Below are positions 1 to 62,000 of a DNA stretch of 64,000 bases, piece by piece. The translations under genes and the position numbers were made by a program. Each line of letters opens with the position of its first letter. Position 1 is the stretch's first letter. This DNA comes from Rhynchonema sp. JSB1_4 (lineage: Eukaryota > Nematoda > Chromadorea > Monhysterida > Xyalidae), in NCBI GenBank assembly GCA_030248065.1, contig JASAMV010008391.1:1-64000 (forward strand), in the 5' to 3' direction. Below the pieces are notes generated by a model, which ran no database searches, had not been told where the DNA came from, and saw nothing but the letters and a program-made list of their open reading frames with translations.

Positions 1-3000
1 AAAACTCCCGTGAGACAATAACTGAGGTACCATCAATTCACGGCTGCTGATGCAGAATCGTGACTTCTGTTGACAGTGTTTTGGATTTGTCTGGTATGAA
101 AATAGAAACCCAATTTATTGTTAGGTGCCTCCATTCAACTAAAAAAGGTTCAACATTTCTGCCGATGAAGCCAACGTAAAAAAGTGCCCGGTTTTTTTAG
201 GATTTCGGCATAAAAGTGGCCGTGCAACAACTTGCATCAGTCTATTGTAAGTCCATGGGGATCAGACGCACGCGACAAAAGTCACTCATGCACAAAGTTA
301 GCATTCACTCTCTCCAGTTGGAATGGAAATTCGTCAAGACAACTGTGATACATAGCTTATTTGACAAGCTTAGGAATTGGTATGCGCCTCTTGTTTCCAC
401 ACAACTGTCCGTAGCTTCTGGTGTTAAAATTTGATATCTGGCTGAACCTTGAGGCAAACGAAATTTCAGCTCGTGATAGGAGGTTGGTAATTGTCATCCC
501 CTAAATGGAACCAAATTGATGGTAACAATCAAATTGCATTATTGAGGGCCAAGCGCGGCATTTCTAAATAAAAGCTTGACAAATAGAAGTACAGTCCTTC
601 AAAATAGCGACAAGCTCAAGCGCGCGACCATTATTTTGCTGCTTCTTTGTATTGCTGACTGGTGTTGCTGACTGACTCGCGCTTAAACTTTCCAGCTTAT
701 TTGGCGAAGACAAAGAGCGCAGTTTTATTTGCTGGACACGATTATATTTATTTTCGTGGAAAATGAGATTCACTATTGCAGTTTTGGTCTCCTACTTTCG
801 AAGCTGTTATATCAAGTTTGGCCGTTGTTCTCAAAAACGTATCTATAGTACTTTACAGTTTACAACGCAACGGCAGCTGAAAACGAAATTGGTCACTGTG
901 GCCGAATAATCTCGATTCAACATTACGGTCACCACGTGATCGTCGTCGAAGTCGATCGTCAACAGCTCCAGCACTGATCCAACTCCAGCTCCAGTGCATT
1001 TGTCAATTGAAACATCAGCAACCATGCGATCGGCGTCGTCAGCTGTTTTACAGTAAGTTTATTATTATTTATTCTGCCGTGACTTCTTGCCACCGGAAGG
1101 TCGCCTTGTATACCAAATAATGTTGAAAGACACACTACACGATGCTGATGGTCACTAATGCTGGTCAGTGGCTATTCGTTACGCAACAGCGACCAGCTTG
1201 AGATCTAATGACAACCTACAGGGATTAGCATGAAACATCATAACACTCGGGGGTTTGTAACATTGCCATTTGACCCACTTCTTAACTCCGAGTGTTCGGA
1301 AATTTTTGAGTGTCAAATGAGTAGTGAACGATCAGCTTCAAACTTGTTTTGAGAAACAGCGCACAACGCAGGTCTGCTCGTTTTTAGATAAAACTTCACT
1401 GCTTGGGTTAGAGGACTTTTTTGTCGAAATATAACAATCTTCAAGAACTGTAACGCGAACATCAGCTGCAGCAACAGAGATTGTCCACCTTATAACAATC
1501 CAGTGTCTCGGTATGACCGCCCAACTCTGGCAACTTCATAGCCAAGTGACCCCATGGGACCAAGCGGGCACTGATCGAGTCCTTTACTGACGTTTTGCGC
1601 TGAACCCGTATAGCTGTTACATGCGCACCTGAATTTTCCACTTCTGAACCCCGTGTCTAGAAAAAGAATGGTTCCGGATTACAATATCTGGCTATCGACT
1701 GTTAAAGATCTATTGACAAAACCTTCAGGTGTTTTAAACCGGAAATTTTCACTTGTAAGGTCTCGAAATCAGTGACAAAGATTGGACCGAAATAACTTTG
1801 TTCAATCCCAATGCAATGAAACTTGTGCTGGGTGTCTTGTAACGACTGAAATTGTCATTTTTGGCACGGCAGGAATATCGTATATCGGGCGAAAACATGG
1901 CAACTGTCCTATGTTTGTGCACCTAAAAAAGTAGGAAAACGCCGCATATACATGGTGAGCCATCTCTATGCATGAGAATATTATGCAAAAAGGGGGGACA
2001 CCGCACCGTGTGCGTGAAGCTCACGAAATCGTATATGTATAGCACCGAGTTTGGATTTTCGAGCGTCGTTTTTTCGTTTGTTTTTGTTGGGCCTCACACA
2101 CATATGCACCCCAAGACCCATCAGAGTGCTGCATCTTGCAGTAACTTTGATAAAAGCGCGTGTAACATCAAGATGCGAACTGAGGGCAACAGTGCGACAG
2201 GACGGGATAAAGCCCGGGGCTTTGTTTTGACCGAACGCTTGTGCTCGCTGTGGTTTCATGCAGCTTATCAGCCCATTTCGAACGTGTGAGTCAAGAAGCG
2301 CGTCTAGTGCTGCACAGTTGATGTTTCACATGACAAGAACTAAAAAATGACGACTGTCTGACCGTGTGAGAGCGGAGACTGCACTGCGCAACAAACCTCC
2401 TATCATTTGGTAAACAGCATATTGTAATTTCTGGTGTCTTTATGAAGCAATTCCTGTTGAGCTCATTTGATATGGACAATTTGTGCGAAGTGTATGGCAG
2501 CCAGGCAGAAAGATTTGGTGCATCACCGAATTAATGGATCCGATTTTGTCCGTTTCTTTTGATTGCGAAGGCCAACTTTTTTAAAACAAGCCACCCTGTT
2601 CACCCGTCGTCCTACTACTCATGATGACATTAATCGTCGGGGTTTTTCTCTCTATTTGTTTGAACTCCTCAATTGCCAAACTGGAGCCTAGGAAAACTTG
2701 CCAAACCATTTCATGTATTTTGTTGAAGCACCCGCAGCAAATCGTTTATTGCTCTCTGAAAGCATACTTGATTTGGCGCACTGGCAGCACGATTTCAATT
2801 TAACCAAGGAGCGCACAAAACGACTGTTGTGATAACATAATGTTCATTGACTCTCCATTTGAAAATTCTCCTCCAAAATCGCTTGTTGTCGAAAATGAGC
2901 TGCGATAAAGGCATACTATATTCGGTTTGGTCAGTCATAAACCAACGTCCCAATTCATCAGCAATGGATATGTATGCTATGCAGATGTACCGGGCCGCTT

Positions 3001-4201: not shown

Positions 4202-4413
4202 GTTATAATACTTTAAAGGCTTCTCAAGACAACGTCATCAATTACTTCCCAATTTTCTTGATTGCTCTCGATCTCGACTGAGGAAGAATTGTGTATTAGG
4301 GGGCAAAATAGGTGTCCATTTTATGTCCCGTGCGAGTTCCAAAATAGGAATCGTATCGCCTTCTCGTATACGTACATACTGTACGTGCAATTCAATGAAT
4401 TCAGCCCTGTCCT

Positions 4414-4840: not shown

Positions 4841-7800
4841 TATAACAGTGCCAAGACCTATAACGGGTTGAATGTCCGTTGGACGCGCGGCTGGAAATTT
4901 GTTTCTAGATAGATTCAATGACTTCATTCTTGAATAAACTTTGCTTAATCATCGTAGCCTGCTGCATAATATCAAGCGGTTTCCTGGTTTCCTGAGCCTC
5001 CATAATCTGTGTTTTCGTTTTGCATGAACTGTTGATTTCTTGCTGTTTCTTTGTTTGAGGTCCCATTTGTGTTGTTTGCCGCAATTATAATTTTTCTGTC
5101 AGAATAATTTTCAGAAAAGCCCTTCCTGTTTAACATTAGGAACTAACCTGCGTACCTATATGTAAATTGTGTTTCTGGAAAACCATAGAATTGTCAGAAG
5201 AACATGAAAGCATACACACAATGCAAATGCGAATTTCATTTAACCGTGCCGTGCTGTTTCCCAAACCCATTTTTGAATTCCCCACATCTTACGAACCAAA
5301 CTGTTAAACTGTTGAAGGCTTGCTGATGAGTCCTCAAGTTCACAAAGATACACATCCACTTCTTTTTGTACCCTAAATCGTACAAGCGCCAGACCGTTTT
5401 ATGAGCTCGTAGAAACGCTCTCAACTTAACTGTGTCAAAAAGAATTGAAGTGAATACCCCGAGCTATAATTGAAATAACACACTCACGTCTCCCTGGTCA
5501 AAATAAATTTTTTTCGGCAGAAAAACCGGCACCGAAACCTTTCCGGGTAATCTGTTTTTAACAAAGGGCGCGTCTACCTGAGCCCGTTCAGCTTTGCTGA
5601 TTCGACTTTACTCCAAGCTCCCCGAAAAGCACTAAAATGATGTTACTCCAGAGCTGCGTCGACTTTCGACAGGTATGTATAAAGTTATTGAGACATTCTT
5701 GTGTTTGTTACACTCGAGAAAAAAACAGGCATCAGCAGCGCATCTTGTTTGAACCAATTCTCGGACTTGGGAACCAATTCGTGATTCTTGATATCGGTTG
5801 CTTGGGATCGCAATGAAATGCACTGTACCCACCCAAAATCGTGGAGCCCCGCTCAGGTTTGCAGGTTGGGAGCTGTTAAAAACAGAAGTAGACATTGCCA
5901 GAGCATCATCACGTTCGTTAAAAATCTTATACAAACCTGGGGTTAGTAAGGTACTAACTACAAGGTCAAACAGCTGGACTTATACATCCGTCGTGATAGA
6001 AACTGACAAACTGACGTTGAAAGATCTCCATTGAAAATAACCATGATTTCTGACATGGGCCGTTGGTCCTCAAAATACTACCGCACCGACCGTCCCGATA
6101 TTGAACTGGGGGCTCGGGAATCGAACAATAGGGACTTGCAGAGAGGTCAAACCTGCAGACTCAAGTGAGTGTAGCTTTCTTGTAAACACAATTGAGTTGA
6201 AGAAACTTTCTTGACTTTGTTTATGATACGCATTTTGCAATGCTTCTGACCGATGTGATGTTTTAGCCGGTTTGCAAATATCACTATGCAAGCACGCAGC
6301 TGGATCCGTTCTTCTCGAAATCCTTCTCTCCTGTTTATTTTCGAAATAAGGAGCACTTCCTTGTGGCGAAGGGGCTGTTGTCGCCAGTCAAATTATTTTT
6401 ATGGCTTATTATGACGTTGACCCACATATTTCTGGCGACCAATTCATTTTCATTTCTGCTTTTTGAAATTCCCCGCCCTCTTTTGCGTTCTGATATGACA
6501 TGACCAAACGATTATGTGCGGTCCTATTGGTGTGCGAAGGTTCAATGTGGCCCCTACACTGTGGTGCTGGCAATTGGCCCAGCGGATTTCACTATCAGAG
6601 ACGATATGACGTGATCATAAAATTAAAGTGCTGTGCTGCTGCTCTACCGTAGCATAGCTTCCATAGATTTAGCACGAGCAGTACCTGTTATTCACTTTCA
6701 AATGCCGGCTCATAAGAGGCGGTAAGTTCAAGAAAAATGATTGGAGCACATTTCAAGCCAAAGATCACGTCATTTATAGTAGAGGAACTGCAGTGAAGCG
6801 CAACGATGCTAGACCAATGTTGCTTTAGGGCTTCGTAAAATGGATGCACATAATGCATACCTAGAGCCCTGCCATAGGTATGTATACGTTAAGTCAGGCT
6901 GATCGGGACTGGTCCCGGTTCGGTAGCATTGTGAAACATCAGCAAACCGCTCAATTTCAGAACGCGTCGCAGCCAATCACAAGCGTCGGGCGGTGCACAG
7001 GGGTGTGACCAGAATCGCGTAAATCGAGTCGATGTCGATATGAGTGTGTTCCATACAGAGACCGACTCACTGCTTGGCAACAGCACATATACCGGACCGG
7101 AGAAAACTGCCGGTGCGTTTAAATGGAGGGCAACTGAGCAACTTTATTAATAAAGTTAATATACCTAGTGGTTAATATTGTGACCTGATCGGGCGGGACC
7201 TCAGGTTTGTACATACTGTATACCTACATGTACATCTTCGGTCACAAGCCACAGGATAATATCACTATAAAGGGGGTATAATAAGAGCGTATGCTTTAGG
7301 GAGATCGGGCGGAGCCGGCATTCTTTTTCATTTCTCTGAGGATGCCACTGTAAAAGGGGTGCTACCACTCTCTTTCTGTGGGTCCAGTGAACTACAAGGG
7401 CAGTTTTCCATCTAATGCGATTAACATCAAAGTGCACGTTTTGCACATCTTGATCCTAAAAAGTCAAATCGCCCTAAAACACACTCACTGTCTGTCGTTT
7501 CAAGCCAAGTCTCTGAAAAAAACCAACCTCAGACATCGTTGACATGCGATCTCTCAGTTGACAAAAAAGACAAACAAAGCTCAAAACAGCAGATCCGGCT
7601 TGACCAAATTATTGGTCGCGCTGCTGACTCGCACACACATTATGGGCGGGCCGATATTGGTTTTTGTCGTGACACTTTTTGTCCCACTTCATGGGTATGA
7701 AACAAGTATTGATATCTACACACAGTATATCTGTTACAGCGTGAAGTTTGTTATTATGTGGGCCCAATAACTCAAAGTTTCGGGTCAGAAGTGTCATCCC

Positions 7801-9486: not shown

Positions 9487-12400
9487 CGCAACGCTACGGT
9501 AGTTCACCCGAATGTCATCGTCAGCACAACAACCACGTGCCGGCCGTAGACCCGCAGCTGCCGGATGCCGATGACGTGGACTCGATCAAGGATCAATTAT
9601 TGCACATCAATATTGGTGGCACCAAGTTTCTGCTTCACTCGCGGCAGCTCATATTGAGGTTTGCAACACACCTGCGACTGTGTCGTTTTTATGCCCATAA
9701 TTTTGTACACTCTTCAAACAATTACTATTCGTGGCTGTATGAAACACGGCGTTAGCTGCTTTGAAGCGTCACCGACCAAATTTTTGCATTTCAGGTGCCC
9801 ACAAAGTTTCCTCGCCACTTTCGCCCGTTGTACAGATACGGAGCGTCGTACGCGATGTGACGGGTTCTTCCGCGAAACTGCGCAGACCAGCGCAGAACCG
9901 GCCGCAGACCACGACGGCGCGTACTTTTTCGAACGCAGTGCCAAACTGTTCGACTGTATCTACAAGTTCTACGTCAGCGGCCAATTGCACAGGCCAATGG
10001 ACACTTGCTTACAGGTATGTATATGTGTCATCGCATGTATTGTGATCGAGTCAAAATATTTATTCAGAATTATCTTGCCGATCCCGAAACAAATCCCAAA
10101 TTTTTCCTCAGGAATTTCTTGACGAACTAGTGTTTTGGGGCATCCCTGACACGTACATAGCACCGTGCTGCAGTCCCATCAATTTGGAGGAACCTGAAGA
10201 TATGGAAATGGAGGATCAATTTAAAGTTGGTCACTTTTCATATTTTGGTTATTATTACGGTCAATTCCTTAATTTAAAATTTTGAGAAATACAGTTATTT
10301 TGACCAGACGCTCAAGTACGGCGAGCAACGTCGCAAGATCTGGGACACGTGCGAGGGCGACGGCACAACGATATCCAACATTTTTGCATTCGTATCCATC
10401 GGTTTCGTCATTGTGTCCGTAACATCGTTGGTCGTCAGCTCACTACGCGACTTTCAAGTGCCTATCAATCGAACTAAGGTGATGTTTCATATCCGAACTT
10501 GCGAGCATCTGACACTCAGATGTGTGATTTTAATAGTTATGTACATTTGCGAGAACGATTGGAAAGTAGCGCTTGTGGTCTAGGAACTAGCGCCGGTTGC
10601 TTATCATCGTGTGTGAAGAAAATCAGTTAACGTTGATTACGCAGTAGCACATGAATTTTACGGCTTCGTTGTCGGTTGTCGATTTTCCAACAGAAACAAA
10701 ATTTTTAACTTTTTAGACTGATTCAGACGACGAAACAACGGTTTGTCTCCGATGCAGAACCTCCCAGAGAAAAAGTGTTGTGTCTCAACGAATTGTCATG
10801 TTATTTGTAGTCCTGATGGCAAACATGACAGTTCAGCACTGCACATTATTTTATAGCACTGTGTTCGATAGTTGTAATCCATTTAACGGTCAAACTTATG
10901 CACGAAATTATCGGTGCCTCAGTTTACTGTATATCAGCACGAGTGGGGTGATTGCGGGGCCAGAGCTGTTCGGTGTCGGGAGAGATATTTGCACTTTGTC
11001 TTTCCTCGGTTGTGACGTCATGTCGCTCGCTATAGTTGTAGAATGCAACCCGAGACTTGATATATCTATAATTATTAGTTCCTGTCTCTTCTTTTACAAA
11101 CTTTATTCGTAACCCCAGCTCAATTTTACAGACTTATTTCGAACCCGACCCAAACGGCAACGGTTCGATAGAACGAACGGAGGTGAAAATACGCTGGGAC
11201 CCGCATCCGGTATTCGAGTACATCGAGACCATTTGCATTATCTGGTTCACGTTCGAGTTCTTGCTCCGAATTATCGTCGTTAGTTTTTGCTGATTTTTAC
11301 TATTCTTTGGGATTACAGTTCAAACGTGCTGTTGCGAAACTCTCTTCATTCTGAAACTTTGTGAATAGTATATATACATATGCACAGATGTGACAAAAAC
11401 TCTGGTTGAGTTTGAGCGCAGTGGTGTTACAGCCCAGAGCCCAGCAATAAGCTCTGCTGGTCGGGCTATGTATTTGAGGCAAATTTGCCAGAGGCCTTCG
11501 CGCTGACGAGCCCTGGCACCATCGTCCGTCTGCGAAAGCAGGGCGAAACAGACCAACATCACTGCACTCAGTACGTACAGTACATTGTGGTTTGGTTTCA
11601 CAATCTCCCATCACATCCTACAGCTACAGCCTAAAACCACTCTATGTTGCAAAAAATATATGCGTTACTTACCGAAAATGGCGGATCCTTAAAAAGATGG
11701 ATCCTGAATCTACGGACTTGAGTGCCTTGAGAGGAGCCGTCAATCTGGCAAAGGTGGTAAACGTATATGCGGGTGTTCTTTGAGGGCACGGAGTGCATAT
11801 GACGCGTGGTGGGGTTGCCGTTTCGACCCAAAGTCTAATACCGCGGCTGCCTGGGTCTCGTCAGTTAGACGGACAGCCAGCCCCAAAAACCTGATGGTAC
11901 AGTCTCAGCACCAGACTAAAGTCTGGGTAAAATCCTGAGTCTGTTTTGTATTTTTTCTAACATTGCCATTTTCCAGTGTCCGAACAAACGCGAGTTTCTC
12001 AAAGGCACCCTCAACATCGTCGACATACTGGCGATTGTGCCCTTCTACTTCGAGATGTCCCTGCGTCTGGCTGGATTCAGCACCGAGTCACTCGAAGACT
12101 TCAAAGGCGCATTGCTTGTGGTCAGTTAGGCTCATGTTTCATATTAGATTTTAGAGTCGACCAGGGGCACGGATAACAAGTGTAACACACACACACCACT
12201 GCGGTTTTGGAATTGCAGGTGTGAATAAAAAATAAAAGAGAAAGCACATTCGACCATCAGTTGATCAGCATTCATGGTAAAAATTGGCAAAATAAAGGAG
12301 AAAACACCGAAAATTATCAGATTCGAGTGCTGCGGGTGTTGCGCGTGATGCGAATTCTCAAACTCGGCCGTTACTCGTCCGGTATGCGTACATTCGCGTT

Positions 12401-13506
12401 GACACTAAAGAACAGTGCCAAACAGTTGGGCATGATGTGTATGGTTGGTTGCAAACTTCCAACATTATATTAGTTGATTTTGTCTATAACTTGGTTACGT
12501 CTGCCTACTGAAGTGTCTGGCATCTCATTCTAAGCACCATACATAGTAACCTTCCATAGGGTCGTTGAAAAATATTTTTGACCATGAATACATCAGTGAT
12601 GCTCGTTCTCAACTTGTTTGAGCTCATGGTCCATCTGAAGGCTTGGTCCTTGCTTTTGTTTATGAAATCTGAAAGAAACAAAGTGGCACAAAAACATATT
12701 GCTCTTTATTGGTCAACGAAACTCTTGTTCTGGATCCATTCGTTCCACAGAAGGGCATAGTACTATGTGTACTAGGACTGAAACATCACCCACGCAGGTG
12801 TTCGCGACAGGCATAATCTTCTTCTCAACGATGATGTATTTTATGGAGAAGGACGAGCCGGACACTCCATTCACATCAATACCAGCCGCGTTCTGGTGGT
12901 GCATCGTCACGATGACTACTGTGGGATATGGCGATGTTGTGCCGACCACTGCCAGTGAGTCAGGCTGGCTGATGTTTCACAACTGGGTGGGAAAGACTAG
13001 TCGATGTGCACTTTGGACCTCCCATGTCTAAGCACAACCTACTTGGGTTTCACGCTCAACTTGTGAAGATTTTGATGCGACCAATCAAAGACAAACAATC
13101 CCCCGACCATAATGCCAACAAAATGCACACAGGCCATCGGTATCAGGAACGATGGAGGCGGATTGACTATGTTTTTTGCAGTCAGAACGCCTATTACATG
13201 ATGCTCTGTTGACAAGAATCACGTCGTGCCTCACGGTCGTGTTGAGTATCAATAGTCAACTTGGTTATGAGAAGTTACTTCTGCAACACCCTGCAGATGT
13301 GCGCACACTCATTTCAGATATACCACCGATAGGTATTATAACAAAACTTCCCCTCACGTCACGGATTGTGTTCAGCTTTCAAATGTATTCCCTTTGTTTC
13401 AGTCGGCAAGCTGATCGGCAGTGCAGCCATAATGTCAGGGGTGCTCGTGCTGGCTTTGCCAATCACAATCATTGTTGACAATTTTATGAAAATGTCCGGC
13501 AAATAA
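9487..13506 (+). CDS. voltage-gated potassium channel alpha subunit, Kv family
   Basis: Ten exons give about 465 residues: 9487-9658, 9795-10014, 10112-10225, 10287-10478, 10717-10740, 11132-11278, 11977-12120, 12321-12443, 12798-12954 and 13403-13506 (TAA). The N-terminal T1/BTB domain contains HINIGGTKF and [33 protein letters not shown] recalls the Shaw/Kv3 T1 end. S1 ([13 protein letters not shown]), S2 ([13 protein letters not shown]), S3 ([13 protein letters not shown]) and S4 ([16 protein letters not shown], five spaced arginines) are in order. The pore reads [14 protein letters not shown], the potassium selectivity filter. S6 reads [13 protein letters not shown]: the usual PVP is PIT, as in the modulatory 'silent' Kv subunits, and the C-terminus ends only seven residues later. 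It should form a plasma-membrane tetramer subunit. Start codon not identified; the gene converges with the CDF gene. Subfamily uncertain. Confidence 0.9.
11406..11575. repeat. dispersed intronic repeat, copy 1 (diverged)
   Basis: This Kv intron segment shares the order of short blocks AGCAATAAGCTCT, GCCAGAGGC, TCGC, GACGAG, CCTGGCA, CGTCTGCGAAA and GGCGAAAC with copies at 24881-25085 and 61719-61905. It is the most diverged of the three. No coding potential, and no terminal repeats were found. Confidence 0.5.
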
Positions 13507-14121: not shown

Positions 14122-16987
14122 TCACCGATTCGGCCACATTTTGCTCGCCGTCGCACCCATTCGCTCGCGTTCCGTGTCCAACTGTAGACGACGCAGCTCG
14201 TTTTTGGGTACTGTTTTCTATTGTTTGAATTCAAATTCCAGTTAGAAGAAAATGTCTTTTTCACCTTGTACTCGAACACATCGTATTTCGCCTTGAGCAA
14301 TGCGCTTGATTTGTTCAACACCTCGTCAACGTTTGTGGCACGCTCTGATGGAATAAGGTTTATAGTTTTCCGATGTTATAAAATCAAACTGCTAACCAGA
14401 TAGGGGGATAATATGGGGTGGAACGAGTCTGGACTATACACCTGGTTTAAATCAAGTTTAAAGAATCATGTTGTTATGATGCCTATTGTTGAAAAGTATT
14501 GCAGAACAATCAAACGTCGTAATCTCTGGCCCCTTAAACGCACCAACGACCAACGTCACGCTCAACGATATTCTGTCCATTGTCAACGACCAGATTCGCA
14601 GATCCTGCACACGGGTGACACCATCGATTGAAAGTAGTGATTCGACGATTTCCGAGAAATCTATGCCTTGCAAGATGCCTGAAACAACAAGGCGAACTTG
14701 CAGCGTTTTCACGACGGGTGTGCACTGGATACAATCGGATTTTTTCAGGAATACATAGCTCTCGGACAGCGCTGCCTTGAAAATTTAGGATCACATGGCA
14801 TCAAGTAACCTTCCGCCATCACATTCAGCACATCGCGCAGCAATAACAACGACGAAATCACGGTCAATGGCACGAACACGAACGCCAGTACAAGGTCGAT
14901 CACGTCATAGTTGTGATAAAACAGCACAGAAACAGTTAATTTCATTAAGGTAGACTGCAATTCAAATTTTCCGCACAACGCAAAACGAAAGACTCGCAAG
15001 GAACGGAACCGTATGTTATCATGCCCCAACGGTATCCCACCCTAAGCATTCTTCCTCCCCTCACCGGTAGGAACCACACGACCAACGACAACGCCAATAC
15101 CAGTACACATTGCAAGGCAAACCACACAGTCAGTGCCACATAAGGACGCATGGGAATGTGCTTCAGGGTGCGGCGAAGTAGCAGACTGCGCTCACGGGCT
15201 GAAGGTTTTGGCAGATGTTTCAAACTTGGTGATCTAATCTGCGGATCGCAAGCTTGATACTGGTAGAGATCAATAGTCAACTGAAATGTAGTTGGTTCAA
15301 ATCACGTGACAAATCCTGTCGAATCCGATCATCAAGTTCAATATCAACCCACACTCTTGTTCTCACAATTCTCCAAGCATACCACCAAAATACATTATCA
15401 GCGAACTGGCGTTAATATTACAGTAACCCCCGTCACGACATACCGTACAGCGGAAATTCGGCCACAATGGATTTGTGTTGATTGAGCATCTCCTGCGCCC
15501 TTGTATCCCGATGCTGCGGCGCCACCCAGTGACCGTAACCCATCACCGATAGAACACTGCAAAATCAGGGTATTCAGTTGCGCTGTAATTATTTTCTTGA
15601 GAGTCTTCAGCCCGTGATCGGTGCTTGTGAGTTCCGATATCATACTAACGAAGTGCCCGTGCCCTGGTTAGGGAGAGTGGTTCTTGGCTGATTCTGAGCT
15701 GGTTCGCGTCCTAAAAACAACGGAAACGCTGCTAGAACTATGACAGAATTAGCAAGAGCCGAGAACCAGCTCAGAAGTCGGTGGCCACTACGTCAACAAC
15801 CTGAAACCAAATCAGGTCTGGTGGCAGGCAATATGACGCCAACAAATGTTTCACAATCCAGACAGAGCGGGACTCACACGGCGGCGAACAGCACGCCGCA
15901 ACCGGCCGTTGCCATGAACGCGATCTTGTTGGTGATGCCGTAAGTGGCCTTGATAGCGTCCTCAACGGCAAGAAACAGAGCGCCACCGACCACAGCCCAC
16001 GCAAGTAGCAACATCGCCAGCACCAGGAATAGTTCTGAAAAATTAATTATGCAGCGTCGTCGCTTTAGACGTCCGTTTCGCCCTCTTTTTTCGGCAGGCG
16101 GCCGGTGTACCAGGTTATCATCAGTATTAGAATGCACCAGAATAAACCAACCGTCAGCACTAAACTAACCAATTTTATACTTCCTATAATTAGCCAGTCG
16201 ACTCGTGGGTCTGCCGGCACATTGAAGTAGAAAGGCGAGGAACAGTAGTCGCGAGAACAGTACCATAAACGCAGTGCTGTTGACAAACAGACACAAACTG
16301 TACGAAAAGCAGGCGCCTGAGGAAAAAATCGAAGAAATATTGACGGCAATTCTTGGGGTGGACTCGAAACTTTGACTTCTGACTGCCGGCGGTTTTCTAA
16401 ACCGCACTGAACTACATATGTATAGGCAATCCGCCAGCTCATGGCACTGGCGCACACAGGCTGCATGCTACATTACTGCCGTCAATGAATGCATCTATTC
16501 TCTGCAGTTATCCGTTGAAATCTTCCATCCCTTCTCTTTTCAGTCAGTTCAATCGTCAACTCTTTTCAGTGGGCAAAGCGCAATACTCGATACATCAATT
16601 CGAAGTCACGCGTATTGAGCTGTCAATATTGGCACTCTCCCCCTATATCTATCTATCCGTTGAAACATCCCCAAATTTTGCAACAATGCAGAATAGTGTT
16701 ATGTCAACTAGCAAATGATAACCGGATAAATTAAAAAGCGGTCATCAAAGTATGACACCCGCTCAAAGTGTACATTTTGTTTAGAAAATGGCGTGTGCTG
16801 CTGCGCATGCGCTGTGTGTATAAAAAGTGCCATGAGCCGATGGATTACCCATATACCTGCGCAGCACACAACAACGCTAACCAACAATTGTGCCAACTAT
16901 AAAAACAACAGCGATGAAGCCGCAGAACAACAGCAGATTGCGTGCACGCGCCAATGCTTCGCGGTCAACGTCCCTGGCGTATAGTAC
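14122..16987 (-). CDS. cation diffusion facilitator (SLC30/ZnT)-like protein, degenerate metal site
   Basis: Nine exons on the minus strand give at least 358 residues: 16987-16882, 16316-16170, 16034-15878, 15556-15444, 15198-15065, 14954-14810, 14678-14544, 14344-14265 and 14181-14122 (TGA). Phases agree throughout. Six hydrophobic segments fit the CDF fold: TM1 RNLLLFCGFIAVVFIVGTI, TM2 LFVNSTAFMVLFSRLLFLAF, TM3 LVLAMLLLAWAVVGGALF, TM4 IAFMATAGCGVLFAAV, TM5 VALTVWFALQCVLVLALSL, TM6 DVIDLVLAFVFVPLTVI. A typical CDF C-terminal domain follows (DFSEIVESLLSIDGVTRVQD, then LRIWSL). The metal-binding His/Asp pairs expected in TM2 and TM5 are absent, so it may be a non-transporting partner, as known for ZnT6. 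The N-terminal exon was not found; an open frame at 17117-17362 on the same strand is a weak candidate. Confidence 0.8.
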
Positions 16988-37725: not shown

Positions 37726-37820
37726 CCCCCAGCACGCAAAAATCCGTTTAATCCGGTTAATCCGTTTAATCCGTTTTATTTATAATGAGTCTTCCCGGCA
37801 CGCTTTAATCTAACGGGAGA

Positions 37821-48172: not shown

Positions 48173-51100
48173 ATGTCTGACACCGAACCAGATCCGGATT
48201 CCGTGAGTGACCTGGCGTACACGATGGTACACGTGACGTCACAGGACGATGCCACTATTGAAACATCACCCATTTACTCGCGAGATTTCATTTACGGAAA
48301 GGGATGGATCTGTGAACAGTAAGTTTATCTGTCATGGTCGAACTGTGATCTGTCAAACATCAGCAATCATTGTACATCGGAGCAAATTCAGTGATGTTTC
48401 AAGTGTTATTCTTCTTTTGGCAATTATGATGCCAGCCCTGGCCCAGCGTGCTTCACTTAGTTGTCTATTACGCACAAGTTTCAGATTCGGTCGTTACCCA
48501 CAAGAGATGATCCTGCGCATGGAGGAGCTCAGCAGCATCCAGCAGATAGCCATACTCGCGCATCACATCTACATTCGTGAGTGGCGCTGGCTGGCTGGCT
48601 GGTTGATGCTTCGCAATTTCATGAATGTTCAACTTTGTCACTATTTCAGCGCAGCACATCGATGTTTTCATTGGTGTGCCGCGCAATCCGCGAAACGCCA
48701 ACCCGCATTGGACCGAGGCTCATTTCATCGCAATGGGACAGGCGAACTTTCAGGTTTGGAAAATCCTTTCAGAACTCCACCGAAACCGGACACGCTTGTG
48801 GGCCACATTCTTGCGAAACTCAGACTGGGCACCTGATTAATCGCAATTTCTTCTTCCCCAGGACAACTCGCAAACGGATCACCGAATGACCGAGAAAAAA
48901 ACGATCTACACAAAAGCAGTTGGTTTGTTCGTCAAATTCGTGTTCTCGCGAAACTACGAGACGCCATACAACAAAACTGGACAGGTTGGCCTGCTGGCTC
49001 TTCAGTGTCTTTTATTCGCGATAATAAACTGATAAAATGATTCTTTTGTCAGGTGGGCATATTTGGCGTGAAGCTTAAAGGCATCGCGCACGGTCACGGT
49101 CGCGTGGTACGAATCGATCCACATGGGGATGGCGGTTATGTCATCGGTAGGGTTGGCGTAAAATCATTTTTTTATCAGAAAAGCTGTTTTTCTTCGACCC
49201 CGATTTTAGGCGACGGGTCTGATTCGGACACGTACGTGGCTGACGACATAGTCCACAGGGACAGAATGAAGAAAGAAAAGAAACGGGATAGGAAGAAAAA
49301 ACTTGAAGAAGCCAGGTATAATCAATGCATAGTATACCTCAAAATGTTCATGGTAAAATTTATTTTTTATGACCGAAAACCTTTTTTTCAGAAAAGAGCC
49401 CCCCGGTGTGATTGAGATCGAAGGCCGAAAATGGCGTCCGCCTTCGTTCGTCGACCACGAAGAATACGATGACTTGATCAAAGTTTTGGAAGAGAAAAAG
49501 AAAGAGAAAATTTATCAACGAAGGTTCATAATTGTCAATTCAGCTAAAACTTTTTAAACTATAGTTGTGAAAATCATGATTGCAGTTACACGGACGCAAA
49601 GGAGATCAAGTCGATTCAGGACGATCTGAAAGTGCAAAAGTCGAACATCATGAAAACACATGCGGACTTGTTGCGTGCAATCGACAAAGAGGACTTTCCA
49701 CAAGTGCGACTTTGTTTTTATGAATGAATTTTATTTACAACCACCTGCCGACTGCCACAGGCGCAGCAATTGCAACGAACCTATGACCGAGACCGATTCA
49801 ATGCGACCAAACAGTACAAGCACTTACCGAGATTCTTAAACGAACGAGAGGTTGGGTGATGTTTCACACGAGTAAAAATATTTCATCGTAGCCAGCCGCA
49901 CGCAAGATGCGTTTCAGCGTTACCATTACATCGAACATTTTGGTCGTCGGGAGCGATCACTGCAAGAGGGCTACCCGGATCCGACTAAGCTGGATGGACA
50001 GGTATGAATGAGGCAAGACATGTACCATCCCTCAGCAGCTGTATCTCCTGACCTGTATCCAACTTGGTAATCGGCTGGATCGGGGCTGGCGTTGCGCTTG
50101 CTCTTTCGTATGGATGCTTCGCCATCCGCTTATGACAAATTTTTTGCCCGCACAAAAGTTCGTTATTGCCTGTGACTGGAAGCAGACATGGTGCAAAAAA
50201 GTCACATGATCAAGGCAAGACCAAACCGCACTGATCACCAATTTAGATACCAGACAAAATCCTTGACAGTTCCAATATTCTGAAACATCTGTGTATATAT
50301 TAATTCAGGTTGAGGGCGACGTGCCTGGTCGTCACTACCACTACAATCCGCAACGATACGGCAGCGACAGAGAGGAATTCAATCCCAACTCGGATCTGTG
50401 GGATGGATACAGAATGGTGGACGGTGGTGGAGGTGGAGGTGCCAGTCCCAGACCGGGAACGATGGGACCGACCAGGTATACAATGTGAATGGAATGGAAA
50501 AGAAAATAGGACCTGATCGGTTTGACCAAGAACTATCCGAGAACCATGGGACCGACCAGGTATACAATGTGAATGGAATGGAAAAGAAAATAGGACCTGA
50601 TCGGTTTGACCAGGAACTACAGTATGTGGGGACTGTCATCTATCACCGTTGTTATCATGCCCATTGGTGACATGTACCTAATCCCAATCAAGATCACAAT
50701 CAAGTCATGAAAGAGATAATACTGAATGCAACCGCAGTGAAAGCACGGAACACAATGAAAGAGAAAACTCTGAATGCTGGTAATGCAATGGATGGGAAAG
50801 TACTGAACGTAATGAAAGAGAGAAAACAGATATATATGGCGAGAAAGTAAGTATAAGAAAATACTGCAATTTTAGCACGAGTCCGAATGGTCAACGTCCG
50901 ACCGATGGCTTCCCCGACGAAGATCGAGTGCAACAAATATTGGAAATGGATCGAAACAATGACCCGAACACGGATGATGAGTTGACGAAAGTGTTGGAGG
51001 AAATGGAGCAACAGGACAGGACTGATCTCGATTGGAGACTGCAGGTGACGAAAAATTACAGTCCTAGGGTGGAATAAACGGTGTAAACGTCAGTTGGGTG

Positions 51101-52445
51101 TAAAGGTAGGCGTAAGCTCCGTCGAAAGCTCGGTCGGTGTAAGCTCGGTGTAAACACGAAACATTGCCTGCTGTTAAAGGGGGCCTTTCGCATTTCAAAC
51201 CCCCTTCAAACCTCGCATGTGTTTAGACAGTGGTCAAGGCGTCATAAAAGTCAAACACACCGGAGGTCTAACGTTCAGCATGCGGCCAGGAGATGCCCTT
51301 CAAGAGGAACATCCGGGAATAAAGTCAAATGTGGACCAGCCCAATTTCCACCTGCGCATTCAGGCAACTCGCCTGATGACAAGGGCGGTCAAGGCGCAGA
51401 ATGTTTCGCAGGATATGTGCCCCTGCCTCACTATAGAATTTTGCTTTTTTTATTTCGAATTGCAATGAATAGTTCATGTTTGGGTGCTAAATGTTTCAAG
51501 GTCTGCTTTTCACGCTGGAACAATTCGTTGAAATTCGAAATATAAAGAAAATCGAAATTCCATAGTTAGCGGTGTTGCAAAGTTTCATGCGAAATATTCA
51601 TTCGCCTTGACACCTTTTTGATCAAGCAGTTTACCTCAATGCGCAGGTATAAATTGGGCTAGTCCGCGGCACACTTTGTTCCCGGATGTTCCTCTTGAAG
51701 TGCATCTCCTGGTTGCGCATGCTGCAGATCTGCAGATTGGGTGCAAAATTTGAGAACGGTTTGAACTGTGAAAGGCCCCTTTAACGTGGAATGTTTCATA
51801 TTTACACCGAGCTCACACCGACCTCGGTGACGTTTACATTGTTTCGAACACACCACTCCCAGGCTGGCATCATAGTGAGTTGACCGGCAGAGTAATTTTC
51901 GTTCATTAAGAGTTGAGTGGTCCCGAAGTATAGCAGAAATTCCCAACAGCTTTCAACATGAGACAGCCCAAATTATGATACTCACTTGCGACAGTTCCGA
52001 TGATAACTACACCCCAAGTATAACCCTGCTAAACCCTCAGACAATTATGCGTCGGCACGGCGTCTCGTGGGACAAACGTGTAGACAAGAAAAAGAAGGAC
52101 GTGTTCGGTAAAGAGCTGAAAGTGCCCACGAACTCACGGATTGGGGACGAAGTTTATGATTTCAAACCGTCCACACCGTTGCCAACGACGAAAGAGGATC
52201 GGGATCGCACACCGGTCGCTTGGTGATGTTTCATTTCATTTTCAAGTATCAAGTAATTAGGCTTCGTGTCATGATAGGTACCTCGAGGTGACGATCGCAC
52301 CCCTGAACCACAAAAGGAACGCGTGCCTGATGACCCTGCTGTGGATGATGCTGCTAACTCGACGAATAAGAAAAACAACACCAAAAATAGTGAAAACAAA
52401 AGTGACAACGCTTCTGGTGAAAAGAAAGGCTGTGCTTTGCAGTGA
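48173..52445 (+). CDS. CEP104-like ciliary/centrosomal protein, without a visible TOG domain
   Basis: Fourteen exons give about 623 residues: 48173-48318 (ATG), 48485-48576, 48650-48753, 48862-48984, 49053-49146, 49210-49315, 49392-49523, 49586-49703, 49761-49855, 49896-50001, 50309-50475, 50876-51044, 51963-52214 and 52278-52445 (TGA). The N-terminal 180 residues match the CEP104 jelly-roll: YPQEMILRMEELSSIQQIAI, LAHHIYIPQHIDVFIG and YTKAVGLFVKFVFSRN. Next come lysine/glutamate-rich helices (EYDDLIKVLEEKKKEKIY) and a CEP104-like pair of coiled segments. CEP104 binds microtubule plus ends and cilium tips through a TOG domain. I see no TOG or zinc-finger region here; the C-terminus is polar and low-complexity. 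The start of exon 13 is the weakest boundary. Confidence 0.72.
51085..51840. repeat. large foldback element in CEP104-like intron
   Basis: TTAAAGGGGGCCTTTC at 51174 is mirrored by GAAAGGCCCCTTTAA ending at 51784. Further in, the arms share CAAGAGGAACATCCGGGAA, and further out GGTCGGTGT and GCTCGGTGTAAA, so the inverted homology extends past the TTAA points. It fills most of the intron between 51045 and 51962. Non-coding. Confidence 0.8.
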
Positions 52446-53545: not shown

Positions 53546-56340
53546 TCACATCAGGTACACCAGCCAATACACGATGTTGAACGCAACGAACACAACGGGA
53601 TACACCAATCGACCGAGTCGCATCACCCAAGTGGCTCTGTCAGGCGATTGGGATTGTTTTGGCAGATCGGTCAACAGAGTGCGCTGCTGCAAAGACACAC
53701 GTGTGTGTTCGGGTTCGGACTGAAGTAGAACTGTCGACTTGTGTCAAACGAAGATGTCTGTCCTGGTGATACGACCTGGACATTTTCTGCTGCCAAAGCA
53801 TTCAAAAATAGTATTCGGTCTCACAGTCTTTTCTTCGCCTTCAGCGTCATCCGTGGGTCGTTGTCGAAGTGGGTCCCCCCTTCATTTGTGACCCAACAAC
53901 GACACAAACGAGTGCAATGAATTCAGACAGCATGCACGTGCCAAGCCACACGTCACTGGCCTTCGTGTAGTTGACGGGCGGGAGGTGAAGCTGCTGGTTG
54001 AATGCGGTCGCCTGCGAAAATGGTGGGATCAAAGCTTTGTGATCGGTTCGCATTCTATGACAGCTTCCTGTGAAACATCACTTAGAGCGACATATATGCT
54101 GACGGTAATGTGTGCGTCTGCACTGCACCCAACAGGGATGTTTTACTTGGGATCGCTTGTGTTTTCGGGTCACCCGCCAAGTGACCGGTGCATTTGCAGA
54201 GACGATGACCTGGTGCTCCGCCCAAATTGTGAAAATTGGTTGCTGTTATCAAGTAGTGACAATTGAATGGTGATTTTTATGTTTCACTGAGTGATCCAAT
54301 GTATGCCACGTCCAACCATGGCAGCAGTTGCGATGAGTGTGCCCAATGCCATCAGACATGCAGCCGTAGTGTGTGCACGTGCATCAAGCCACAACGCCAA
54401 CCACCCAATGACAACCAGCATCGCGCTTGGTGTGTACATGTGCAATAATGGGGCACCAAGCTGACGACGCAACTCCATTATCATGAAGGCAGACGAATAG
54501 CAGCCTGAAACATTATGAAGCCTCGGCCCGGCCCTATACTGCGGCCCGACCGGCGGTGCACCGGTTGATCGTCACAGTCTTATGGTTGTGGTCGTCTGAT
54601 GAAAACTGCCGTTCAGGTGCTGTGGCACTCAACTTTGAAAGTTTAAGGCTCTTGTGAACGACAAATACCCGACGGCGTACCGGACGCGGTGCAAATCGTG
54701 CTTTGCGTCGTGTTCACGTTGTCCAGGCTGTAGCCAATCAGCGTGGAGCTAAGTCCCGTTCGAAGCTAAATTATGAACATTCTAACGTTGTGCAATCGTT
54801 GAAGAAGTTAAATGAAATAAACGCACTTGAATGGCATTGCTCGTCTTCCATGCATATTCAATGTTGTTAGTTGTTTGTCCGTAACTCGACAACTCCAATT
54901 TTACCGTTTGTCTGTCATGCGGGTATCGGTGCAGATCCAATGGACATGATAGCACCAGGCTCAGACTGCAAGTTTTTAGACCATAATGCCGCAAATTACA
55001 GAAAGAATTAGTCACTGCAAACAACATCCAAGATTGAAACATCACCCACCGCACACTGTGAAACACCATACCACTCGCATACACGCGAATCAGTTCGTTC
55101 TTCTCATAAACGTCGTGAGTCCGACCCTTTATGTCATTCTGTAACAATTCGGTGGTAATATGCATGTTTTTCATAGCTGGACAACTGTCAATCAAGTCAG
55201 TCCCTGTGTTCACCACACGGTTCTCAACTGATATTCTCAAGGAGAACGCGTTCTTTAGCTGTTTCAAAAAAGGGTTGTTGAGAATATTTTTAAACCGATT
55301 TCAATCAGCATTTGCTCCCGACAACTTTTATGCCGGTCGAATCAGAGCTGTCGCTGACCAAAATTCACAAAAATCACAAAAAGCAAAAACGAGGTCATCC
55401 TAAAAACTGGGTGGTGCGGTGTTGAATACGGGGGGATAATCACGAAGCAACCAACCATAAAGAACGTATCCGGCATCCACACCCTGTTGCTATCATGCCC
55501 ATGCGGCAGGGTCACATACGTCGGTACAATTGTGTCATCGTTGCTGTAGTATGTGAGTCGCTCGTCCTGCCATTCTTGACGATAGGTGAGTTGCAGGTGA
55601 CATTGCTGAAATGGGTTTGTGGCTGCGACGTTTCATTCAGATGATGCGCACAGCACCACATGCGTGATACACGTAAATGTGACAAATGTACTCACTCCGA
55701 ATGTGGGTGGAATGCACTTTGTTGGAATGGCACCCTGAGTCGGGGTGGTCGAGGACAGGTTTGACTTGGAATTGGCATGAACAATGTTTTTGCGCACTGG
55801 CTGTGGGGCATGCACTCCTCTTAGACACACATGGCCAGCTGTAGCTCAGGTTTCACGGATTATATAAAAACATTTTGTGCCAATTCAATGTGAAACCCGT
55901 CCCCGACCACCATACCCGACCCGGATGCCAGCAAAGTATGTACCGCCCTGTCTTTGAGTCGTATCACATTGTTGGGGATAGCAATTGAAATCAAATGCCA
56001 CAATCATCATGCCCACGTGTTTGCTATTCTACAACTTGAAAGTTTGCTTCCGAAGTTTTAACTGACCATTTTTCTATCGTCAAGGCTCAACGAACGCAAC
56101 ATCACATTCACTGTGATCACGACTGGACCGTGCGTGCCTGTCGATGGTGTGCGACTTGTTTTTGTCGTGAAATGCCTAACTGCATAAAAAAGTACAGCTG
56201 CGGCACTCCCGTACCAGGTACGCTGGTGTTTGTGCCCTTTGGTCGCACACGTGCGTCGTAACGCGTTTGGTTGTCCTGCCCAGCAGTGAACAGTTTGTCC
56301 AACACTGCGATGTCTGACGATAGATCCGTCCAACACAACA
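53546..56340 (-). CDS. Cys-loop ligand-gated ion channel subunit (anion-channel type)
   Basis: Minus-strand exons: 56340-56215, 56137-56067, 55605-55456, 55138-55072, 55014-54827, 54765-54669, 54504-54317, 54011-53893 and 53686-53546 (TGA). The extracellular domain has RYDARVRPKGTN, GPVVITVNVMLRSLS, LTYRQEWQDERLTYY and VWMPDTFF, as in GluCl/GABA/glycine receptors. The Cys-loop region reads SCPLDLHRYPHDRQTVKLEL: the second cysteine is valine. Loop C carries ICTASGTPSGGCYSS. TM1 is YTPSAMLVVIGWLALWL; TM2 (ACLMALGTLIATAAM) lacks the usual PAR anion motif. TM3 follows LPPVNYTKASDVWLGTCML, and TM4 ends the protein. The TM3-TM4 loop exon and the signal-peptide exon were not resolved. Likely a divergent nematode LGC-type channel; ligand unknown. 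Confidence 0.85.
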
Positions 56341-59015: not shown

Positions 59016-62000
59016 TCACATGCGTTCAGCTGCACGCGACGCCAGACTGCGCATGTTGCCATAGACCTTGGACGGGGGCGCACCTGGAAGATTCAAGAAA
59101 GGATTGAAGTTGAATAGAAAACGCTCGTTAAAGGGGGCGCGACATTATTATTTTTCACGATACACCGCCTGATTTTATGTCAGAAATTGAAAGACGACAT
59201 CCGAAGGAACATGTCTTACAAAGACAACAACATTGACCCGCGCTGTTTTCAGCATGAAAATCACCCCCGAACGTCGAATGTCAGGAACAAAAGTCAGTTT
59301 GCTGTAGTCGCTTGGCCGCTTGAAGATTAGGCATCGAGCTCAAAAAATTATGATATGGACTCGGCGCTTATGTAATATTTGCGAAACATTTCAGCTGCCA
59401 CAGAAATTGCAACGTCGACAGGTGCTTGGAGCTGGTTGCCGGAAAAATGTTTCGCAGATATTACATAAGCACCGAGTCCATATCAATTTTTTGAGCTCGA
59501 TGCCTGATTTTCAAGCAGCCGAGCGACTACAGCAAACTGACTTTTGTTCCTGACATTCGATGTTCGGGGGTGATTTTCATGCTGAAAACAGCGCGGGTCA
59601 ATGTTGTTGTCTTTGTAAGACATGTTCCTTCGGATGTCGTCTTTCAATTTCTGACATAAAATCAGGCGGTGCATCGTGAAAAATAATGATGTCGCGGCCC
59701 CTTTAATGCTTTACCAAATTTATGATGCACTAGTTTTATGGTGGACATCTTTGTCATCGAGAAGACCCATTCAAAAAAAAGAGATTCTTGTTCGAATAGA
59801 AAAGAAGATGGAAGCTGTCCACGACGTTAGCTGTTACTGGTGGCCATAGAAAACATCTGAACAGACATTTTCGTCCCAGACGCAAGCGAACAAACGACTG
59901 CCGAAGCAAATAATTTTCTACATGTCTATTTTCTTCAGTTTCACAGTTGCAATTTCAACACAAGCAGTAGCAAGTTGTAGAAGTTTTGCTTCTCATTCAA
60001 GCATGAAACATCAATATTGAAGTTGTCCAGTACGGCATTCAAAAAAAGTTCAACCATTCAAGCAACGTATCTGGCATGTCGGTAGAACATCGCTGAGCTA
60101 CGTGAAACTAAAAAACGATGAGCTCATTTGACTAAACCATGAGACTAGACAGACAGGATTAATTCTAGTTTTGAACCAGATTCAGCTAAAAAATGTCCAG
60201 CGAAAAATAGCAATCAAAATCAAAACATTGAAAGCATTACCCATAATCAGGCTGCACACGGCGTTCCTGGCCACTCTGCAGTTCTGAAACGATCCCAATA
60301 TGCTGATCTTGCTATCGGCGAGCACAATACGCGTTTTGGTGACGTTTTCGATGGTGAACTTGGTGCGACCGTCTTTGCCCGCAATTCGGCCGATCGCTCG
60401 CGATAGGTGCTCGCCTTTCAGGGGTTTCACTGCAAAATCAGGGTCGATTTGGTATGTGTGATGACGACAGTGGGTGGGAATGATGATGACAATGGTGTAT
60501 TACGTTCTGGAAGCTTTTAATTATCGAGTCACAACAAGATTCGCAACGGAGCATGATAACAAGTCCGGCAGAGCACCAGTGGGCCATGTTGGACGCCATG
60601 GTGAAATCTAAGAGAATTGATCACAAACACATAAATACGCCACAATAATTAACCGTCATTGATCTCAAATGTTTCAATAAACAGATCGTCCAATCGAAGC
60701 AACGCCAACGCATCCTGAAAATGTGAAAATGTCGAATTTCTGCGATAAGCCAGCGCGTCTCACGTTTGACTACACACTTGTTTTATCGACACACGAAAGG
60801 TAAGCCAGGGCAAAGACCGCCGATTGCTGACGGCTCGTAATAAGCTAAGGTTCAGCAACAAAAAAAACGACAAACCCAAACCCACATCGACATCAAATCC
60901 GAGCACAAACGCTTTCACAAAGTCAGCGCCTTTCTGCAGATTGGCGACGTCGTGTGTTTTGTCGGATTGTCTCAGCTCAACACATCTTGTCTTCAGATTG
61001 AATCGGATCTGTAGATTCAGATGTTGCACAATCGGAGTGAAGATTTTCAGCCAATTCTGTTTCAGCGGTGCGTAGCGATGCGTGGGCACCGGGATCTTTC
61101 GTTGTTCACTCGGCTGAAAAAAAATGGCTGCATTTTACGAATAAGATGGAATTATTGAGATGATTTTCTCATTCAATTTTTTGAAGATTGAAGATTCAAT
61201 TTTTTCTGGTTTTACGTCAATTTATCAATCACTTGAATTTTTCAGATTAGCACGGCATCGTCATTCTCAAGTGAAACAACGAGAACACATCCGAATGTAT
61301 AACACTGCAGCTATTTTTGCAATTATGGTGTTCCAACGTCGTTTTCATCCACAAACGATCATGAAATCGATTTTTTTCTTCAAGCTAGTTGCCTGGTCGC
61401 TCAAAAACATCGATCAGCATTGTGGTACACGATACATCAGTTGAACAAAAAGCCAACCCCACTAACATCAACAAACGCCTTTTTCGCCCTCACAACACTG
61501 CTGGTGGTGGACACCGCGTCCATCGATTCGTCTGCTTTTCGTTTGCGCGACTTTTTCGACGTGACAACCTTGAATTCCTCCTCTTTTGGCGTGCCATCTT
61601 TCTGGTGGTTTTTGGCCGTCGAACGGGTGATTCTCTGCAGTACGCAGTCTACCCCGTTTAGTCACACGATCGGGGACCATAAAGAAAATCCATCATTGTG
61701 ACATACCAGTGGAGTGTGGCTAACTTGTGGTATAATTACCCGTTGCCCTCTCTCACTAGCTTGCACTTTTGTGCGCAGCAGTGGTTTTACTTGGGCAATA
61801 AGATCTGCTCTACGCCATTTTTGGAGCTCAGTGGGCCAGAGGTGTTCGCACCGACTAGACCTGGTACCTCGAAAACTGGCCGAAACGAGCAAACCTCACA
61901 GTTATTCAGTTTGGTGTTTAGGACCACGGGAATTTGCATCACAATTGAGTGCTGAAACATAATTTCAAATAACCCCAGTGTCTTGCCTCTGACACGGTCG

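What the first reader, a model, noticed from the sequence alone, without database searches (positions are those of the whole stretch)
1009..60012. GATGTTTCA motif strongly over-represented and close to the nematode piRNA promoter core
Reading both strands I found about 27 exact GATGTTTC/GAAACATC 8-mers, e.g. near 1009, 1232, 2320, 6933, 10481, 12780, 12976, 16662, 16998, 21310, 22427, 35104, 42069, 46331, 48260, 48391, 49858, 52226, 54071, 55035 and 60005. About two are expected by chance in 64 kb. Many extend to TGATGTTTCAC, and more one-base variants exist. The C. elegans type-1 piRNA (21U-RNA) promoter core is CTGTTTCA, so TGTTTCA is shared. Dispersed copies in introns and intergenic DNA on both strands are what an SNPC-driven piRNA cluster looks like. 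Whether this lineage makes piRNAs is unknown to me.
Basis: partly seen in the sequence, partly recalled or inferred. Interest (0 to 1): 0.85.

Follow-up and report, generated by a model that had tools for sequence, protein, structure and literature searches.

The report
Dispersed half snRNA-promoter sites in nematode
A ten-letter DNA word repeated tens of thousands of times across this worm's genome turns out to be one half of the switch that turns on its small nuclear RNA genes, which would fit it being the on-switch for piRNAs, the small RNAs that guard germ cells.

Summary
The word is real and genome-wide. GATGTTTC occurs 28 times in the window, about 3.6 expected. TGATGTTTCA occurs 37,556 times in the 203.9 Mb assembly, the same word read backwards 345 times. 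Flanks mostly do not align, so it is not one repeat family. The genome is a nematode's (57 cuticle-collagen matches) without canonical SL1.

What the word equals: U4 promoters carry TGATGTTTCAC, and U5, U2 and most U1 promoters the word or a near form, 44-48 nt upstream, nearly always followed by a second half, GAxxGAC. I predicted U4/U5 before reading them; 8 of 8 fitted. Dispersed copies lack the second half (0 of 111). So it is a half PSE/SNAPc site, like the published origin of the nematode piRNA (Ruby) motif. PIWI and SNAPC3 genes are present.

Against: no start-site (YRNT) or low-G+C signal at the expected spacing in 111 sites; C. elegans' own core CTGTTTCA is not enriched. No small-RNA data. 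Best reading: dispersed piRNA promoters, about 0.6.

The parts
1008..1017 (-). TGATGTTTCA copy (half-PSE word)
1231..1240 (-). TGATGTTTCA copy
2319..2328 (+). TGATGTTTCA copy (extends to ...CAC)
6932..6941 (-). TGATGTTTCA copy (extends to ...CAC)
10480..10489 (+). TGATGTTTCA copy, within 600 bp of a BTB_2-coding stretch
12779..12788 (-). TGATGTTTCA copy
12970..12979 (+). TGATGTTTCA copy (extends to ...CAC)
15214..15222 (+). GATGTTTCA copy (first T absent)
16661..16669 (-). GATGTTTCA copy (first T absent)
16996..17005 (-). TGATGTTTCA copy (extends to ...CAC)
21310..21319 (-). TGATGTTTCA copy
21615..21622 (-). GATGTTTC 8-mer only
21901..21908 (-). GATGTTTC 8-mer only
22426..22435 (+). TGATGTTTCA copy (extends to ...CAC)
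35104..35113 (+). TGATGTTTCA copy, about 125 bp from the edge of a TIL-domain ORF
36224..36231 (-). GATGTTTC 8-mer only
42068..42077 (-). TGATGTTTCA copy inside a gag-like (zinc-knuckle) ORF
44777..44785 (-). GATGTTTCA copy (first T absent)
46331..46339 (-). GATGTTTCA copy (first T absent)
46566..46574 (-). GATGTTTCA copy (first T absent)
48259..48268 (-). TGATGTTTCA copy, about 210 bp from the CEP104_N-coding stretch
48392..48401 (+). TGATGTTTCA copy, about 75 bp from the CEP104_N-coding stretch
49857..49866 (+). TGATGTTTCA copy (extends to ...CAC)
50281..50289 (-). GATGTTTCA copy (first T absent)
52224..52233 (+). TGATGTTTCA copy
54071..54080 (-). TGATGTTTCA copy (extends to ...CAC)
55035..55044 (-). 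TGATGTTTCA copy just outside the stretch matched by the ligand-gated-channel family (intronic placement is inference)
60004..60013 (-). TGATGTTTCA copy

Best explanation
TGATGTTTCA(C) is the upstream, GTTTC-bearing half of this nematode's proximal sequence element (PSE), the site bound by the snRNA-activating complex SNAPc. Tens of thousands of copies of that half alone are scattered over the genome on both strands. Most likely each marks a very short RNA polymerase II unit for one piRNA (21U-like RNA): a SNAPc-based complex docks on the half-site, Pol II starts about 35-45 nt downstream, stops after some tens of nucleotides, and the product is trimmed and loaded into the PIWI protein. Shown: the word, its genome-wide excess, its identity with a half of the snRNA promoter element, the absence of the second half at sampled dispersed copies, and genes matching PIWI and SNAPC3. 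Inferred: SNAPc binding at snRNA genes and at dispersed copies, transcription, the start site, and piRNA identity.
For: Genome-wide excess of about 29-fold over the trinucleotide expectation (sample expectation scaled to the genome) and 109-fold over the reversed word. snRNA promoters: U4 exact in 2 of 3, 9/10 in the third, at -47. U5 8-9/10 in 5 of 5 read (of 8 found), at -46/-45. U1 9-10/10 in 7 of 10 hits, at -45/-44. U2 7-9/10 in 8 of 8 over the cut-off, at -48/-47. U6 TGATGCTACA (8/10) at -56 with a TATA-like element in 4 of 5 over the cut-off. Chance of 8/10 or better in an 8-position slot 0.8%, of 7/10 4.7%. The U4/U5 result was predicted in writing before the letters were fetched. Dispersed copies lack the second half: 0 of 111 score >=5, against 7.0-19.5 for the 16 snRNA tails that built the matrix. 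PIWI-class exons at C1663: the second fragment matches 'Protein piwi' at 1.9e-15 and five other PIWI entries better than any Argonaute (HrAgo1 1.9e-5, argonaute-2 3.5e-4); the first matches Siwi at 1.3e-8 and argonaute-1 at 5.9e-4. C4595 and C3368 have the same four-hit pattern. SNAPC3: 3 exon matches on 2 contigs. Published precedent: the Ruby motif as a SNAPc half-site, with dispersed 'P-type' loci in several nematodes (PMC6436959).
Against: No YRNT or T enrichment at snRNA-like spacing in 111 sites (34-40 sites against a mean of 39.5 for 5-wide windows), nor in 174 [AG]ATGTTTCA sites (52-57 against 59.4). The bump in the 111 at +22 to +26 (54 against 39.5) is the best of 56 windows tried and not significant after that search. 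No A/T-rich spacer or low-G+C dip downstream. The C. elegans core CTGTTTCA is not enriched. One copy lies in a gag-like ORF. Departures: three of ten U1 hits (two without the word, one degenerate), U1 L017 and all four U6 lack the usual second half, five near-identical U2 promoters have TGATGTGACA or TGACGTGACA, one over-cut-off U6 hit lacks the word. In the first PIWI fragment 'Protein piwi' (6kr6) scores only 0.27, worse than the Argonautes. No small-RNA, ChIP or CAGE data. SNPC-4, PRDE-1 and TOFU factors were not searched.
Confidence: 0.6

Rival explanations
1. The sites bind SNAPc or a related Myb-type factor but serve another purpose: other short non-coding RNAs, gene regulation, or chromatin/nuclear organisation, with no piRNAs.
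For: The match to the snRNA PSE half is independent of piRNAs. No start-site or pausing signature is visible. The spread over the genome fits a general factor.
Against: A PIWI-class gene is present, and the only precedent I know for such half-sites in nematodes is piRNA transcription (PMC6436959).
Confidence: 0.25
2. An unrelated transcription factor or recombination factor whose site happens to read TGATGTTTCA.
For: The copies lack the second PSE half (0 of 111) and have preferences of their own 4 and 2 bases upstream (T and G).
Against: The match with U4 and U5 promoters, at fixed position, in a prediction made beforehand would then be coincidence.
Confidence: 0.1
3. The copies are fragments of one transposon or MITE family.
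For: A few copies do lie in repeats (three alignments on C4510 and one between U1-bearing segments); some have paired spacings on C3 and C9.
Against: 113 of 114 sites remain when sites 70% or more identical, ungapped, over 68 downstream bases are merged (copies that differ by insertions, as on C4510, escape this). Gapped BLAST of the sample against itself (65-96% identity, 80 bp or more) found a motif inside only 4 reciprocal pairs of alignments.
Confidence: 0.02
4. Splice-acceptor or coding signal (TTTCAG).
For: TTTCAG is a common nematode acceptor (recalled). Open frames around the sites are somewhat longer than control at some lengths (400 nt or more: 30.6% of 72 against 18.9% of 702; 200 nt or more: 88.9% against 78.9%).
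Against: The base after CA is C 40, T 29, A 23, G 19 of 111: G is the rarest. Median open-frame lengths are alike (306 against 300 nt).
Confidence: 0.02

Closest known systems
Ruby motif of type I 21U-RNA genes in Clade V nematodes (C. elegans CTGTTTCA)
   Same: GTTTC core, thousands of separate copies, a half of the SNAPc motif without its partner, PIWI present (published side).
   Different: The word here is TGATGTTTCA; CTGTTTCA is not enriched. No canonical SL1. 37,556 copies against >15,000 loci quoted for C. elegans (abstract of PMC7917550 in the listing). No YRNT or AT-rich spacer seen. In snRNA promoters here the partner half lies downstream of GTTTC, whereas the paper's text puts GTTTC in the 3' half.
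Plectus sambesii / P. murrayi piRNA promoters
   Same: GTTTC element shared with snRNA promoters; PIWI outside Clade V; P. sambesii not clustered.
   Different: Published Plectus promoters are bipartite, both parts almost always together, and P. murrayi has 3,082 motif sites; here sampled dispersed copies carry one half only.
P-type dispersed piRNA loci (Pristionchus pacificus)
   Same: Spread over the genome (published); here too, with some copies near coding stretches.
   Different: P-type loci show strong downstream pausing signals, not seen here. Intronic placement was not established here.
snRNA PSE bound by SNAPc
   Same: U1, U2, U4, U5 promoters share the word or a near form at -48 to -44, and U6 has a form at -56 with a TATA-like element.
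   Different: Dispersed copies lack the GAxxGACTACCCC half.

Membership tests
Ruby-motif piRNA promoters | Over-represented GTTTC-core word with mostly non-repetitive flanks | tested here: met
Ruby-motif piRNA promoters | Exact C. elegans core CTGTTTCA enriched | tested here: not met
   15 against 21.5 expected in 264 kb; this concerns the C. elegans form only
Ruby-motif piRNA promoters | Motif equals half of the same genome's SNAPc/snRNA motif | tested here: met
Ruby-motif piRNA promoters | PIWI (PRG-1 class) gene present | tested here: met
   (two exon fragments; no full gene model or tree)
Ruby-motif piRNA promoters | YRNT start site about 40 nt downstream | tested here: inconclusive
   not seen in 111 sites at snRNA-like spacing; by my estimate a quarter or more of sites with an extra YRNT in that 5-nt slot is disfavoured, smaller fractions or looser spacing are not
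Ruby-motif piRNA promoters | AT-rich spacer and downstream low-Tm pausing signal | tested here: inconclusive
   nothing seen: flat G+C profile in 96 and 111 sites; size of the expected effect unknown to me
Ruby-motif piRNA promoters | 21-nt 5'-U RNAs bound by PIWI | not testable with these tools
   no small-RNA reads
Ruby-motif piRNA promoters | SNPC-4, PRDE-1, TOFU-4/5 present | not tested
   only SNAPC3 was searched (present)
Plectus-type bipartite piRNA promoters | Both parts at each dispersed site | tested here: not met
   second half at 0 of 111 sites
Nematode genome | Cuticle collagen N-terminal domains | tested here: met
   57 matches over the cut-off; that the domain is typical of nematodes is recalled
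Nematode with canonical SL1 | SL1 22-mer | tested here: not met
   0 with up to 2 mismatches in 203.9 Mb; RF00198 0 matches, but no positive control rang

The most novel reading that the evidence does not exclude
A nematode outside Clade V and the plectids, perhaps a dorylaimian or enoplian, kept PIWI and makes motif-dependent piRNAs from tens of thousands of dispersed half-PSE promoters. Its snRNA PSE has the GTTTC half upstream and the partner downstream, so the 'half-PSE' route to piRNA transcription would be either ancestral to all nematodes or invented more than once.
Probability: 0.35. Interest if true: 0.85.

Novelty: new variant of a known kind. Interest (0 to 1): 0.72.

Why it matters
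Nematode piRNA promoters are thought to have been carved out of snRNA promoters, but in the comparison I read PIWI was found only in Clade V and two plectids (PMC6436959), and an earlier survey listed no PRG-1/PIWI in clades I-IV (PMC4323106, passages). A nematode genome without canonical SL1 that has a PIWI-class gene and about 37,500 copies of one half of its own PSE gives a new, directly testable point on when and how often this co-option happened. It also asks how a 10-bp half-site is read without its partner.

Tried and rejected
Chance: rejected. Repeat family: rejected in the sample. Splice acceptor or coding word: disfavoured. Second PSE half at dispersed sites: absent (with a shorter matrix the right offset ranked 3 of 60 and, with the longer one, 5 of 54; an early count, where it ranked first of 70, included a U1 gene). 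Start-site and pausing signals: not found. Decay test: in 264 kb the eight core positions (3-10) show 36 one-mismatch words against about 31.5 expected (my sums), which hints that copies are maintained; genome-wide, one-mismatch words exceed the reversed control by about 39,000, positions not resolved, so I do not rest on it. Conservation between repeat copies: motif kept in 8 of 8 pairings against 32 of 64 flank 10-mers; the 8 are 4 reciprocal pairs, too few. Species name: not found. The mariner ORF gave 3,643 matches with two organism names among the 120 listed; the TIL ORF and joined Argonaute exons gave nothing; a search for the assembly size gave no paper. RNA-dependent RNA polymerase (PF05183): not completed. 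The bare word is in 284 papers, 20 listed, none about nematode piRNA by title. Rfam on the window: 0 matches. The count column of '1's was a script error and is not used.

Full report
OBSERVATION. The window holds 28 exact GATGTTTC/GAAACATC words, 25 GATGTTTCA and 19 TGATGTTTCA; 3.6 and 0.4 are expected for the 8-mer and the 10-mer. The assembly that holds the window (G000, 203,913,205 bases, 5,747 contigs) has 37,556 TGATGTTTCA, about equally on both strands, against 345 for the reversed word. In 264 kb of held DNA (window, C137, C1676, part of C4510) there are 72 against 1.7 expected from trinucleotides; ATGTTTCA 152 against 23.6; CTGTTTCA, the C. elegans form, 15 against 21.5. The sampled contigs are richer than the genome average (about 0.27 against 0.18 per kb).

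SHAPE OF THE WORD. Among 96 GATGTTTCA sites the base before is T in 79; two and four bases further upstream G (45) and T (46) are preferred. Of the other columns only two, at -22 and at the far end (+128), pass the listing threshold, weakly, out of 249. C is the commonest base after the final A (40 of 111). Of 114 sites, 113 remain when sites with 70% or more ungapped identity over the 68 downstream bases are merged; gapped BLAST of the sample against itself put a motif inside only 4 reciprocal pairs of alignments. AATGTTTCA is also in excess (46 against 7.7); part of it sits in a short inverted repeat.

WHAT IT MATCHES. I located snRNA genes by Rfam models and read upstream of them. U1 (ten hits, nine over the cut-off): seven carry TTATGTTTCA or TGATGTTTCA at -45/-44; two lack it; the one below the cut-off has a degenerate form. 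U2 (nine hits, the eight over the cut-off read): 7-9 of 10 letters in all eight, at -48/-47. U6 (nine hits): of the five over the cut-off, four have TGATGCTACA at -56 followed by a TATA-like element; of four weaker hits three were printed and lack that form (two of them hold GATGTTTC elsewhere), one was not read. From U1, U2 and U6 I wrote a prediction for U4 and U5, then fetched all three U4 and five of eight U5 promoters. All eight match 8-10 of 10 at -47 to -45, two U4 exactly, and all go on with five bases and then GATAGACTACC or a near form. A random 8-position slot reaches 8 of 10 with probability 0.8% and 7 of 10 with 4.7%. The plurality sequence over these promoters is about TGATGTTTCAC-N4-GA(A/T)(A/T)GACTACCCC; I take it to be the PSE of this species. 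The second half is missing at U1 L017 and at U6 and shortened at three U2 promoters. Many of these promoters are paralogues, so the counts are not independent; U1, U2, U4 and U5 as classes are.

ONE HALF ONLY. A weight matrix for the second half scores 7.0 to 19.5 on the 16 snRNA tails used to build it; of 111 dispersed sites none reaches 5 at the right offset, and the mean at that offset ranks fifth of 54. In the 264 kb sample the strong full elements are the two U1 genes; one weak one lies at window 61272 (-).

MACHINERY. Pfam Piwi: 54 exon matches on 17 contigs. Fragments from C1663 (58 and 52 residues) match PIWI-class structures best (Siwi 1.3e-8, argonaute-1 5.9e-4, though 'Protein piwi' 6kr6 only 0.27; 'Protein piwi' 1.9e-15, HrAgo1 1.9e-5, argonaute-2 3.5e-4). 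C4595 and C3368 show the same four-hit pattern and may be paralogues or the second haplotype; their letters were not read. SNAPC3: three exon matches on two contigs. Nematode: 57 cuticle-collagen N matches; some Argonautes look like the worm-specific WAGO group (my recollection, untested). No SL1 22-mer with up to two mismatches and no RF00198 match (without a positive control). Unusual leaders are reported for Trichinella spiralis and SL2-like ones for Prionchulus punctatus, whereas those of Trichuris muris resemble C. elegans leaders (PMC7986045, passages). Another paper did not find canonical SL1 at the ends of T. spiralis ESTs and adds that some chromadorian species may lack it too (PMC1657053, passages). 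So the lineage lies probably, not surely, outside the Rhabditida.

MECHANISM. In C. [quoted passage not shown] Beltran et al. derive the motif from the SNAPc site and report that Clade V keeps only the GTTTC half (PMC6436959, sections read; figures not seen). The present genome shows the same relation in its own words: half of its PSE, dispersed, with a PIWI-class gene present. That is the case for piRNA promoters. Binding, transcription and RNA products are inferred.

EVIDENCE AGAINST. With 111 sites, windows five wide at snRNA-like spacing hold a YRNT in 34-40 sites against a mean of 39.5; with 174 [AG]ATGTTTCA sites, 52-57 against 59.4; G+C is flat downstream. If a quarter of the sites had an extra YRNT within one such window it should have shown (my estimate). 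The best window in the 111, +22 to +26 (54 sites), is not significant given 56 tried; in the 174 the best is directly after the word. The published text places GTTTC in the downstream half of the SNAPc motif; here it is the upstream half, so either the architecture differs or I read the halves differently from the paper's figure, which I could not see.

VERDICT. The word is a half-PSE. The piRNA-promoter reading is the most likely, at about 0.6, with another SNAPc-related role next. Searches for the word, for Ruby-motif papers, for Enoplea and Dorylaimia with PIWI, and for SNAPc with Plectus listed, by title and start of abstract, no report of this motif form in such a nematode; some searches listed only part of what they found, and the library holds open-licence papers only.

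Noticed in passing
window 30202-31248 (+): Open 348-aa mariner/Mos1-type transposase frame; the best listed full-length relatives are about 60-62% identical.
   Followed up: partly
window 26000-29600 and 37500-40200: Dense short tandem and C-rich repeats (AGCCCCCC, GGTATCCCC, CCTACTGTA words) with GC skew of about -0.2 near 26-30 kb.
   Followed up: no
window 9661-10122, 48249-48836, 54782-55267, 35238-36023, 41171-42676: ORFs with Pfam matches: BTB_2, CEP104 N-terminal, ligand-gated channel, TIL, zinc knuckle (gag-like).
   Followed up: partly
window 61272 (-): Weak full-PSE-like element (8 of 10 plus a partial second half) with no snRNA match in the window.
   Followed up: no
L017 (G000:C3984): A U1 gene whose promoter has exact TGATGTTTCA followed by a TATA-like GGTATAAAGG instead of the usual second half.
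   Followed up: no
L012 and L016 (G000:C5667, C1907): Two U1 copies share an upstream sequence without the PSE word; possibly silent copies.
   Followed up: no
264 kb sample: AATGTTTCA is also about six-fold over expectation (46 against 7.7), partly within short inverted repeats GAAACATT...AATGTTTCA.
   Followed up: partly
G000:C1663, C4595, C3368: Three loci with the same series of four Piwi-domain exon hits: paralogues or uncollapsed haplotypes.
   Followed up: partly
G000:C1090 and C2701: SNAPC3 matches on two contigs, possibly two genes.
   Followed up: no
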